64,000 nucleotides of DNA from Pseudomonadota bacterium. GTDB lineage: Bacteria > Bdellovibrionota > Bacteriovoracia > Bacteriovoracales > Bacteriovoracaceae. The position numbers and the translations under genes are program-made. Below the pieces are notes generated by a model that made no database searches, was not told where the DNA came from, and saw only the letters and a program-made list of their open reading frames with translations. Below, piece after piece: positions 29,100-33,297 of this stretch (positions are counted from its first letter, which is position 1; each line of letters begins with the position of its first letter). The stretch is taken from the NCBI GenBank assembly GCA_027488375.1, contig JAIYBW010000001.1:372001-436000 (forward strand), given 5' to 3'.

Positions 29100-29412
29100 T
29101 AAGACTCCTAGTTATTCCTAGGATCCTAGCTCTTTTCCTGTTTTCTTTGGGTGACCATTGAAAAAAGGTAGAGGGCCGTTAAAACTTTTTACATTTATAA
29201 ATTGTAGATTTTTCCGTTTTGACGGTATTTGAGGATTTTTACCTTCATAAAGCTTGGATTTATTCCTCCTCTTTTATCAATCTTCTTAAAGATTTCAAGA
29301 TAATGAGGTTCATAACGACCGGTTATTTTATAATCTTCGTAGAGAGATTTTAACCGGCCTGGTCCAGGAGATAATGAGAAAAAGGATGGCAAAGATGAAA
29401 TGGAATCTGATC

Positions 29413-29448
29413 ATGACTAAATTCTTCAAAAAAATTTAGTCATTTTTT
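29413..29448 (+). terminator. Intrinsic terminator on + strand: ATGACTAAATT-N9-AATTTAGTCAT-TTTTT
   Basis: Perfect 11-bp stem with T run on + strand only. Confidence 0.7.
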
Positions 29449-29673
29449 ACCCCTTGGGTCTTGAAGGAGCTAGGCTTTTTGAAAAATGTATAGACTTAAG
29501 TCCTTAAAATTATTTAGTCTTTCCTGAAGGGTCTTATGGCAATTTCCGAATGAGATAAAGACTTGGACTAAGTCGAAGCTCTGTGCTAAGTTCCCGAAGA
29601 CATTCATTTTATATATTTCATTCTTGCTCATGGCGCTAATGTCCATGGGCTTAATTATAACCCTGGAGGAAAT

Positions 29674-30285
29674 ATGATCTACGAAACGGCATTTGTCGTT
29701 CGCCCAGACGCATCCGAAGAAGTTGTAGCTTCTATTAAAAATTCCCTTTCGGAAACTTTTAAAGAGTTCGGTGCAGAAGTTCTAGTAAACGATTCATGGG
29801 GAGTAAAATCTTTTGCTCAACCAACTGAATCTGGCCTTAAAAAAGGTGCTTATCACTATTTCATGTATAAAGGTGCTGGTAACCTTAATGCTGAAATTGA
29901 GCGTAAGTTCCGTATTAACGAAAATCTTGTTCGTCATATGATCATCAAGCTCGGTAACGACAAAGATCAGGCAACTATCGTTAAAAATTACAAGAACCCA
30001 AATCACACTCAAGCTGCTCAAATCGATGATGAGTTCGCAGGTGGCGAAGAAAAAGACAAGAAAATGCACTCAAAGCGTAAATCTTGTTGGTTTTCTGCTT
30101 CTAAAACTTCACCTGATTGGAAAGATCCAAAATCTTATTCATGGTTAGTTAATGAATTCGGTAAGATTTCTCCAGCTCGTATTACTGGTCTAACTCCAAC
30201 TTTTCAGCGTCGTGCAAACGAAGCTATTAAGCGTGGCCGTAATATGCTTCTTATCAGCTATCAATCAAACGACATCGCTCGTTAA
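29674..30285 (+). CDS. rpsF-rpsR: Fused ribosomal protein S6-S18 (single ORF)
   Basis: N-term 'YETAFVVRPDASEEVV...RINENLVRHMIIKL' is S6; C-term 'KRKSCWFSASK...YSWLVNEFGKISPARITGLTPTFQRRANEAIKRGRNMLLISY' is S18; no stop between them; followed by DUF2232 gene and rplI. Confidence 0.92.
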   Translation: MIYETAFVVRPDASEEVVASIKNSLSETFKEFGAEVLVNDSWGVKSFAQPTESGLKKGAYHYFMYKGAGNLNAEIERKFRINENLVRHMIIKLGNDKDQATIVKNYKNPNHTQAAQIDDEFAGGEEKDKKMHSKRKSCWFSASKTSPDWKDPKSYSWLVNEFGKISPARITGLTPTFQRRANEAIKRGRNMLLISYQSNDIAR

Positions 30286-30295
30286 TTGGTAAGGT

Positions 30296-31276
30296 ATGAA
30301 CGCTGAGGTTATGCAAACTCCAACACTGTCAAATAGTAGATTGGCCCTCTTAGGGGTCTCGTCTGTTATTTTGTGCGTGAGTTTCATTATGTCGGTGTTT
30401 GCCCCGTTTCCGCTGGCCCTTGCTTTTATCCTTTATGGAAGAGTAAAAGGTTTTTTAACTGGTTTAGCAGGCCTTGTATTGAGTTTTATCTTTGCAAGTT
30501 TTGTTTATCAGGATCTGACTCTATTTGGTTTCTATGTTGGTGTTTTTATTTTTGGTTATGCGATTGCTGAAATTGTCATCAGGGGATTTTCTCCAGTCAA
30601 AGGGCTTGTTGCTTTTGGAATGACATTCATTTTACTCATGAGCTTTGGCTTTATGGGAATTGTTAAATCAGAGAACTCAACAGTGGAGCAGTTTGTTTTA
30701 AAACAAATAGAGAAAAGTTCGGATAAAATAGCTGAGCAGAAAAAAATAATTGAGGCAAGTTCGGAAGAGAACACAACTGAGATTCTCAATCTTTTAGATC
30801 GTCCAGATTTAATTGCTCGTGAGATGATCGCTTCACTTCCAGGCTATTTCTTCATTGGTGTTTTTTTAATGCTTTGGTTTAATATGTTTCTAGCGCTTAA
30901 AAGTCGTAGGCTTTTGTTTGCAGGGACTGATTATCCTTATTCAGAAAAAAATCTTCTGAATTTTAAAGTTCCATTCGGTTTTGTACCCTTGCTAGCCTTG
31001 GGTCTCATTATGGCCGTTTGGGGTGATAAATCGGGGATACCTTATTCTGAGGTTTGGGGATACACGATCGTTAAATGTCTTGGGATTTTTTATTTCTTCC
31101 AAGGTTTTGGCGTTTTTAGTGATCTTTTAAATTTCCTTGGAATCATGGGGTTTTTTAGAACGATTATTGTGATGATGGTTATTTTTATGGCCAACTACTT
31201 GATCGCAGCGGCCGGCTTGTTTGATAATTGGTTTGATTTTAGAAAGTATTTTGTTAAGTCAAAAATTGAAGATTAA
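30296..31276 (+). CDS. DUF2232/YybS-like membrane protein
   Basis: Multi-TM protein between S18 and L9, as in several other bacteria. Confidence 0.7.
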   Translation: MNAEVMQTPTLSNSRLALLGVSSVILCVSFIMSVFAPFPLALAFILYGRVKGFLTGLAGLVLSFIFASFVYQDLTLFGFYVGVFIFGYAIAEIVIRGFSPVKGLVAFGMTFILLMSFGFMGIVKSENSTVEQFVLKQIEKSSDKIAEQKKIIEASSEENTTEILNLLDRPDLIAREMIASLPGYFFIGVFLMLWFNMFLALKSRRLLFAGTDYPYSEKNLLNFKVPFGFVPLLALGLIMAVWGDKSGIPYSEVWGYTIVKCLGIFYFFQGFGVFSDLLNFLGIMGFFRTIIVMMVIFMANYLIAAAGLFDNWFDFRKYFVKSKIED

Positions 31277-31294: not shown

Positions 31295-31867
31295 ATGAAA
31301 GTTATTCTCATTGAGAAGGTAAAAACTCTTGGAACAATCGGAGAAATCGTGAATGTTTCAGCTGGTTTTGCTCGTAATTATCTCTACCCAAATAAACTTG
31401 CGATTCTTGCTGATGAAAAGAACTCTAATGTTCTTAAAGATAAGCAAAAAGCTCTCGCTAAAAAAATTGATGCTGAGAAAAATGCTGCTCTTGCTGTTAA
31501 GAAAAAGCTTGAAGGTATTACTGTTGAATTGATCAAGAAAGTTGGTGCTAACGGACGCCTTTTTGGTGCTGTTACATCGACTGAAATTGCTAAAGAACTT
31601 GAAAAAGCTGGCGTAATGATCGAGCGTCGTCTTCTTTCATTTGATGGTTCTATTAAGTCTCTTGGAACATATGAAGTTAAAGCAAAACTTTTTAATGATG
31701 TTGTTGCAACATTCAATTTAAAAGTGGCGATTGATGCTGCTATGGCCGAAGAACTTAAAAAGCAACAAGCTGAAGCTCAGAAAAGAAATGCTGAGAAAAA
31801 AGCAAAAGCTGAAGCTGCTAAAGCTGCTGCTGCTGCAGAAGCTGAAGCCGCTGCAAACGCTGAGTAA
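31295..31867 (+). CDS. rplI: 50S ribosomal protein L9
   Basis: 'MKVILIEKVKTLGTIGEIVNVSAGFARNYLYPNKLA'. Confidence 0.97.
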   Translation: MKVILIEKVKTLGTIGEIVNVSAGFARNYLYPNKLAILADEKNSNVLKDKQKALAKKIDAEKNAALAVKKKLEGITVELIKKVGANGRLFGAVTSTEIAKELEKAGVMIERRLLSFDGSIKSLGTYEVKAKLFNDVVATFNLKVAIDAAMAEELKKQQAEAQKRNAEKKAKAEAAKAAAAAEAEAAANAE

Positions 31868-31950: not shown

Positions 31951-33297
31951 ATGGCCGTCCAAGAAAATAAAAATGAACTTCCCCATGATCTTGGAGCTGA
32001 AAAAGCCCTTCTTGGATGTCTTCTCATTGATGGCCAATCATTTGATGAAATTTCAGATGTCGGTTTAACCAAGGATGATTTTTTTCATCCTCAATATGCA
32101 ATTATTTATGAATCCCTCAAAGATCTTCATCTTGAATCTCGTCCAATAGATATTGTCACTGTTTGCTCAAAATTAAATGATCATGGAAAACTAGAAAAAG
32201 TTGGTGGTCAATCAGCTTTGGTAAGCATATGTGATGAAATAGGGTCCTCTGCTAATGTTGAACATTATGCCCGAATTATTAAGCAGAAAGGTGTTTTAAG
32301 AGACGTTGTTCGGACGGCAACGAGAGTCATGCAAACAGGGACTAATTTCTCTGGAGATGTAGAGGCTTTTTTAGCAGAAGTTGAAGCTAGTTTTTTTAAA
32401 CTTACGGCCCAGTCAAAAAATAATAAGATGATCTCTTTAAAGGAAGCTCTTTATGAGAACCTTAAGGAATTAGAAAGACCTGCAAGAGCAAAAGGTGAAA
32501 TCACTGGTGTGTCCACAGGCTTTAATTCAATCGATGTCAGACTGCTTGGTTTACAACCTGGTCAATTGGTTATCATGGCCGCTCGACCTGGTATGGGTAA
32601 AACAGCTCTTGCTTTAAATTGGGCCGTGGCAGCTGCAAAGCAAACAAATCAAGCCGTTGCTGTATTTTCCTATGAGATGATGTACGCAGAATTATCGATG
32701 CGTTTACTTGCCTCAGAAGCTTGCGTTGATTCCCGTAAACTTAAGACAAAAGATTTTAATGAGATGGATCTTCGGGCCATTTCAGGTGCTATTCAAAAAT
32801 TATCTAATTTAAAACTTTATATCAATGATAATGGTTCAACCAACTTGATTGATATTCGTTCATACTGTCGAAAATTAAAAGCTGAGCAGGGTCTTGCCAT
32901 GATCATTATTGATTACTTGCAGCTCATGCCGATGCACGTAAAAAAACAAAACCGTGAGCAAGAAATTGCTGAACTTTCTCGTGGCCTTAAAATGATGGCC
33001 AGTGAGCTTGGTATACCAGTGGTCGCACTTTCTCAGTTGAACCGTTCTGCTGCTGCCCGTACTGACAGACGTCCCCAGCTCCAAGATCTTCGAGAGTCTG
33101 GTTCACTTGAGCAGGATGCTAACATTGTTGTCCTGATTCATCGTGAGGATTACTACGATGCTAATACTCCGAAGAAAGGTGTTGCAGAAGTTATCATCGC
33201 TAAGAATAGAAATGGTGAACCCGGGACAGTTGAACTTTCTTGGATAGGCTCTCAGACTAAATTTGCTGAGCTTGAGAATAATAGATCCGAGAGCTAA
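31951..33297 (+). CDS. dnaB: Replicative DNA helicase DnaB
   Basis: 'PHDLGAEKALLGCLLID', 'MAARPGMGKTALALN', 'LRESGSLEQDANIVVLIHREDYY'; ATG at 31951 preferred. Confidence 0.96.
   Translation: MAVQENKNELPHDLGAEKALLGCLLIDGQSFDEISDVGLTKDDFFHPQYAIIYESLKDLHLESRPIDIVTVCSKLNDHGKLEKVGGQSALVSICDEIGSSANVEHYARIIKQKGVLRDVVRTATRVMQTGTNFSGDVEAFLAEVEASFFKLTAQSKNNKMISLKEALYENLKELERPARAKGEITGVSTGFNSIDVRLLGLQPGQLVIMAARPGMGKTALALNWAVAAAKQTNQAVAVFSYEMMYAELSMRLLASEACVDSRKLKTKDFNEMDLRAISGAIQKLSNLKLYINDNGSTNLIDIRSYCRKLKAEQGLAMIIIDYLQLMPMHVKKQNREQEIAELSRGLKMMASELGIPVVALSQLNRSAAARTDRRPQLQDLRESGSLEQDANIVVLIHREDYYDANTPKKGVAEVIIAKNRNGEPGTVELSWIGSQTKFAELENNRSES

What the first reader, a model, noticed from the sequence alone, without database searches (positions are those of the whole stretch)
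29674..30285. Ribosomal proteins S6 and S18 encoded as one fused polypeptide
The 203-codon ORF carries a full S6 domain (about codons 1-100), an acidic linker 'NPNHTQAAQIDDEFAGGEEKDKK', and a full S18 domain from about codon 131, with no intervening stop. In most bacteria rpsF and rpsR are separate genes, often with ssb between them; here ssb is absent and DUF2232-rplI-dnaB follow. S6 and S18 are established partners that form a heterodimer on the 30S platform, so a covalent fusion is structurally plausible. Codon 131 is an in-frame ATG (30064), so S18 might alternatively be made by internal initiation.
Basis: partly seen in the sequence, partly recalled or inferred. Interest (0 to 1): 0.85.

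Follow-up and report, generated by a model that had tools for sequence, protein, structure and literature searches.

The report
Fused ribosomal proteins S6 and S18
In nearly all members of one bacterial family (Bacteriovoracaceae), two ribosomal proteins that are separate partners in other bacteria (S6 and S18) are encoded as a single joined protein, and the joined form has lost the zinc-binding site that the unjoined relatives keep, which offers a natural test of how ribosome parts can be merged.

Summary
Window 29674-30285 is one open frame of 203 codons with a full S6 domain, a 34-residue linker and a full S18 domain; no other rpsF or rpsR was found in the genome. It is not an assembly error. 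By comparing two searches, 115 of 122 resolvable genomes of the family (Bacteriovoracaceae, about 40 genera) carry the same frame; six have separate genes and one has a stop in the linker. The linker is under purifying selection. Internal initiation at codon 131 is unlikely: that ATG lacks a Shine-Dalgarno sequence in nearly all 26 genus members, whereas the S6 start has a strong one, and 36 of 96 fused genes have no ATG, GTG or TTG between the domains. Best reading: one polypeptide acts as a covalent S6-S18 heterodimer in 30S assembly. New here: every fused S18 that could be scored lacks the C-x-x-C...C-x-x-H zinc site; all six unfused family members keep it. A conserved covarying hairpin precedes the gene and is not matched by Rfam's RpsF_leader. 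The number of origins is unresolved. I found no description in the open papers searched; annotation databases could not be checked. Protein-level proof is missing.

The parts
29674..30285 (+). rpsF-rpsR fusion gene, 203 aa plus stop
29680..29949 (+). S6 domain (aa 3-92, PF01250)
   Evidence: structure model matches solved S6 chains, TM up to 0.92 by target length
29962..30063 (+). linker, aa 97-130 (NDKDQATIVKNYKNPNHTQAAQIDDEFAGGEEKDKK with its flank); predicted helical start, then disordered from aa 113
   Evidence: dN/dS pN/pS 0.22 in the genus; pLDDT below 50 at aa 113-138
   Evidence: no Shine-Dalgarno sequence upstream; absent from most fused relatives
30070..30264 (+). S18 domain (aa 133-197, TIGR00165), zinc ligands lost: C-W-F-S and T-P-T-F in place of C-x-x-C and C-x-x-H
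29665..29669 (+). Shine-Dalgarno GGAGG of the fusion gene
29626..29650 (+). leader hairpin GCUCAUGG-loop-CCAUGGGC, conserved with compensatory changes in the family
30296..31276 (+). DUF2232 membrane protein, next gene of the conserved cluster
31295..31867 (+). rplI (L9)
31951..33297 (+). dnaB

Best explanation
The gene makes one polypeptide in which S6 is joined to S18 by a flexible, charged linker of about 35 to 50 residues. It is the cell's only S6 and S18. It folds as two domains that dock on each other as the usual S6:S18 heterodimer and bind the 30S platform as one unit, which fixes a 1:1 ratio and removes the dimerisation step. Shown: the open frame, its spread and age, purifying selection on the linker, absence of separate copies, no ribosome-binding site at the internal ATG, loss of the S18 zinc site in every fused member scored, and a conserved leader hairpin. 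Inferred: that the chain stays uncut in the ribosome, that the domains dock as in other bacteria, and that the leader serves autoregulation by the fused protein.
For: Both domains score above curated cut-offs in one frame, and no second copy was found. All 24 genus genomes are fused. By my comparison, 115 of 122 family genomes where both domains could be placed are fused. The linker has pN/pS 0.22, against 0.16 in S6 and 0.06 in S18. Of 96 fused genes, 46 have no ATG and 36 have no ATG, GTG or TTG between the S6 domain and the S18 cysteine. At the S6 start the run matching AGGAGG is 5 or 6 bases in all 26 genus genomes; at codon 131 it averages 2.2. The structure model has an S6 fold and S18 helices joined by a disordered linker. 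S6 and S18 are known to form a heterodimer before binding the rRNA-S15 complex (PMC4647458).
Against: No protein-level evidence was available. Cleavage of the linker after translation cannot be excluded from sequence. One genome (G112) has a TAA in the linker and no start codon for S18, which is either an error or something that complicates the picture. Six family members live with separate genes, so the fusion is not required in the family.
Confidence: 0.88

Rival explanations
1. The fused chain is made but is cut in the linker after translation, so that the ribosome holds ordinary separate S6 and S18.
For: The linker is predicted disordered and is rich in lysine next to the S18 start, so a protease could reach it. 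Six family members work with separate proteins.
Against: No cleavage motif is conserved across genera, and the linker varies in length and sequence. The need for a dedicated protease would have to be kept in about 40 genera. No processing of this kind is known to me for S6 or S18.
Confidence: 0.08
2. S18 is also made separately by initiation at the in-frame ATG of codon 131 (30064).
For: The ATG and the following HSKRKSC are invariant in the 26 genomes of the genus.
Against: In nearly all of the genus the ATG has no Shine-Dalgarno sequence (two genomes have a 4-base match), while the S6 start has 5 or 6 matching bases in all. Most fused relatives have K, R, L or another residue at that place, and 36 of 96 have no usable start codon in the linker. 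The conserved sequence can be explained by S18 protein constraint.
Confidence: 0.04
3. Assembly or sequencing artefact that hides a stop or a frameshift.
For: The genome is a draft in 11 contigs at 91% completeness.
Against: The same open frame occurs in 24 of 24 genus genomes and in about 115 family genomes, including assemblies of 1 and 2 contigs. The linker shows codon-level selection.
Confidence: 0.001
4. The fusion is selectively neutral: loss of one stop between adjacent genes for equimolar partners, with no functional gain; the zinc-site loss is an unrelated event on the same branch.
For: E. coli S18 also lacks the site without being fused. Zinc-independent S18 forms are known in other bacteria (PMC5912738). 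L31 has also lost its cysteines in many fused genomes, so zinc sites are lost here for other reasons too. The number of independent events is one to a few.
Against: The fusion and the zinc loss go together without exception in the family (0 of 95 fused against 6 of 6 unfused), while L36 keeps its cysteines in every genome checked. The fused state has persisted through deep divergence with a selected linker.
Confidence: 0.45

Closest known systems
Separate bS6 (rpsF) and bS18 (rpsR), which act as a heterodimer in 30S assembly
   Same: Same two domains, same operon neighbourhood with rplI, single copy, domain scores above the curated cut-offs
   Different: Here one polypeptide with a linker; no free S6 C-terminus and no free S18 N-terminus; zinc ligands of S18 lost
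L10-L12 fusion of Candidatus Sulcia muelleri DMIN (PMC2859065)
   Same: Two interacting ribosomal proteins encoded as one chain, checked by several sequencing methods in that paper
   Different: Reported from one reduced symbiont genome; here the fusion is the normal state of a family of non-reduced genomes (mostly 2.4 to 5.6 Mb)
Eukaryotic ubiquitin-ribosomal protein fusions (for example ubiquitin-L40, PMC7674629)
   Same: A ribosomal protein made as part of a longer chain
   Different: Those are cut to release the ribosomal protein (general knowledge); here both halves are ribosomal proteins and no cut is indicated
Zinc-independent (C-) S18 of mycobacteria (PMC5912738)
   Same: Loss of the S18 zinc ligands
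   Different: There it is a second, separate gene used under zinc limitation; here it is the only S18 and it is joined to S6
RpsF_leader, the S6:S18 autoregulatory RNA (RF02893; PMC4647458)
   Same: A hairpin just upstream of rpsF
   Different: Rfam's model finds the E. coli leader but nothing in five related loci or in the window

Membership tests
Ribosomal protein bS6 | Scores above curated Pfam and NCBIfam cut-offs over the full model | tested here: met
   70.3 bits against 27; TIGR00166 54.9 against 42.9, model positions 2-93 of 95
Ribosomal protein bS6 | S6 fold | tested here: met
   AlphaFold model aligned to solved S6 chains, TM by target length up to 0.92
Ribosomal protein bS6 | Free C-terminus, the site of RimK glutamylation in E. 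coli | tested here: not met
   The S6 domain runs on into the linker. RimK-family genes exist in the genome but the family model does not separate S6 modification from other uses
Ribosomal protein bS18 | Scores above curated cut-offs over the full model | tested here: met
   50.3 bits against 21; TIGR00165 51.8 against 38.75, positions 3-68 of 70
Ribosomal protein bS18 | Only copy in the genome, as expected for the ribosomal one | tested here: met
   One match each in the held genome, which is 91% complete
Ribosomal protein bS18 | Incorporation in the 30S subunit | not testable with these tools
   Needs ribosome proteomics or cryo-EM
Zinc-binding (C+) S18 | C-x-x-C and C-x-x-H ligands | tested here: not met
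   Window has C, S, T, F at the four places; 0 of 95 fused members keep all four
RpsF_leader (RF02893) | Match to the Rfam model | tested here: not met
   No match in window 29100-29800 up to E = 5; positive control in E. coli 110 bits
RpsF_leader (RF02893) | Binding of the S6:S18 complex | not testable with these tools
   Needs a binding or reporter assay

The most novel reading that the evidence does not exclude
Covalent tethering replaced metal binding: S18 of this family could drop its zinc ribbon because the joined S6 stabilises it, and this happened more than once, each fusion going with loss of the zinc site. The best-scoring trees place the fused genomes in two groups separated by unfused, zinc-site lineages, although a single origin is not rejected.
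Probability: 0.2. Interest if true: 0.8.

Novelty: new variant of a known kind. Interest (0 to 1): 0.6.

Why it matters
S6 and S18 are a textbook pair in ordered 30S assembly, where dimerisation comes before binding to the rRNA. A family in which nature has joined them, next to close relatives in which they are still apart, makes it possible to ask what covalent tethering does to assembly order, stoichiometry, autoregulation and zinc dependence. It also matters for annotation: pipelines may name such a gene as S6 or S18 only, so that the other looks missing in completeness or marker-gene counts.

Tried and rejected
Fusions in other classes: G026 and G035 looked like candidates, but reading their DNA shows a stop codon between the two genes, with a start for S18. 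A phylum survey listed no S18 frame above 155 aa outside the family, but its list was cut off for weaker matches, so this is not exhaustive. RimK and RimI as linked losses: both searches were uninformative, because the family models match many paralogues. Known leader: Rfam gave no RpsF_leader hit in the window or in five related loci. General zinc saving as the sole cause: L36 keeps its cysteines in all genomes checked, but L31 has lost them in many fused ones and kept them in others, so zinc saving is only partly excluded. A single origin of the fusion could be neither shown nor rejected: AU p 0.052 with DnaB+L9, 0.207 with RpoB, 0.116 combined. Literature searches for an S6-S18 fusion found no paper. 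Two key papers on the leader were not held.

Full report
What is there. Window 29674-30285 (+) translates into 203 residues and a stop. The first part is ribosomal protein S6 and the last part ribosomal protein S18, each above the curated cut-off of Pfam and NCBIfam. The residues between the domains hold no stop. The next genes are DUF2232, rplI and dnaB. The window lies at G000:C8:372001-436000. The whole genome as held gives one S6 match and one S18 match, both in this frame. With 91% completeness a second copy in the missing part is possible but is made unlikely by the survey below, where each genome also has one S18 match.

Not an artefact, and old. All 24 genomes of the genus that were searched carry the full frame without a stop. 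Two searches of the same 132 genomes of the class, all in one family, were compared by hand. In 122 genomes both domains could be placed relative to each other; 115 have them in one open frame, six have two genes, and one (G112) has a single TAA in the linker. G127 is split by contig ends, G051 has only S6 at a contig end, and eight drafts lack both. The fused state covers about 40 of 46 genera with a match. Record titles of the named relatives are mostly Bacteriovoracaceae. Among 379 genomes of the phylum no S18 frame longer than 155 codons was listed outside this family, though weaker matches were not printed. In other classes rpsF and rpsR lie side by side, with a stop and a new start, and DUF2232 and rplI follow in several of them, so the fusion needed only the loss of a stop between neighbours in frame.

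One polypeptide. In 26 genomes of the genus the linker has pN/pS 0.22, compared with 0.16 in the S6 part and 0.06 in the S18 part. Synonymous sites are near saturation, so the ratios are rough, but the linker evolves as coding sequence. The start of the S6 part has 5 or 6 bases matching AGGAGG in all 26; the ATG of codon 131 has a mean run of 2.2, with 4 in two genomes. Outside the genus and a few close genera the Met is replaced, as in EKDKKRFSRRKSCWF. Of 96 fused genes, 46 have no ATG and 36 have no ATG, GTG or TTG between the S6 domain and the S18 cysteine. Internal initiation is therefore not how S18 is made in those genomes, and is unlikely in the window. Cleavage of the finished chain cannot be judged from sequence.

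Shape. A model from 25 sequences has mean pLDDT 77 and pTM 0.72. The S6 part is confident, residues 113-138 are below 50, and the S18 helices are mostly at 70-85. Foldseek matches the S6 part to solved S6 chains, TM by target length up to 0.92. By sequence, the Protein Data Bank matches shown each cover only one of the two domains. A disordered stretch of about 26 residues can span the distance between two touching proteins (inference). That S6 and S18 form a heterodimer before joining the rRNA-S15 complex is established (PMC4647458).

Linked loss of the zinc site. S18 of many bacteria carries C-x-x-C and C-x-x-H. In the alignment of 112 S18 sequences none of 95 fused members with all four places readable keeps them, while all six unfused members of the family do, as do seven of the eight members of other classes looked at. 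G112 and G127 are of the fused type. L36 keeps its cysteines in all 27 genomes where it was found. L31 keeps them in the unfused genomes and in some fused ones and has lost them in the others. E. coli S18 lacks the site without fusion, and mycobacteria have a second zinc-free S18 (PMC5912738). So the loss does not require a fusion. The association is perfect in this family, but rests on few independent events and may be coincidence of ancestry.

History. Unfused members have S6 ending shortly after NYK-x-P and an S18 with an acidic extension ending in DKDRRMF, which resembles the linker of the fused members. This fits a path in which both tails existed before the stop was lost, but a later split would look similar. 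Trees of DnaB+L9, RpoB, and all three place the unfused genomes near the base or between two groups of fused ones. A single fused clade is not rejected (AU p 0.052, 0.207, 0.116). One origin with gene replacement or misplacement, or two origins, both remain open.

Leader. Upstream of the fused gene lies a hairpin, window 29626-29650. In 49 leaders seven of its eight pairs show compensatory changes. A covariance model built from them gave only weak matches (E about 0.04) in two genomes of other classes; matches in family members include sequences used to build it. Rfam's RpsF_leader finds the E. coli leader but nothing in the window or in five related loci. Because S6:S18 represses its own mRNA in E. 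coli (PMC4647458), autoregulation by the fused protein is a fair guess, not a result.

Novelty. Searches of open papers found no S6-S18 fusion; the nearest is L10-L12 in one symbiont (PMC2859065). Protein annotation databases and the rest of the bacterial tree were not searched, so earlier records may exist. I rate it a new variant of a known kind.

Noticed in passing
L111 (G112), junction of S6 and S18: One TAA in the linker and no ATG, GTG or TTG before the S18 core. Either an error in a draft genome, readthrough, or an unusual start; S18 is of the zinc-free, fused type.
   Followed up: partly
window 29626-29650 and the same place in 48 relatives: Conserved covarying leader hairpin upstream of the fused gene, not matched by Rfam's RpsF_leader. 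Leaders of the unfused genera g35 and g36 look different, with a CCG before the hairpin.
   Followed up: partly
linkers of most fused genera outside the window's clade: A conserved block K-T-P-F-S-K-K-Y-x-G-S-V-x-D sits just after the S6 domain; its role is unknown.
   Followed up: no
L234-L263 (L31 loci): L31 occurs with and without the zinc cysteines within the family; the window's genome has the form without.
   Followed up: partly
L112 (G115:C102:487-744): A second, different S6 on a short contig of G115, with a long charged tail; possibly contamination.
   Followed up: no
G000: No rpoB match was found in the window's genome, probably because the draft is incomplete.
   Followed up: no
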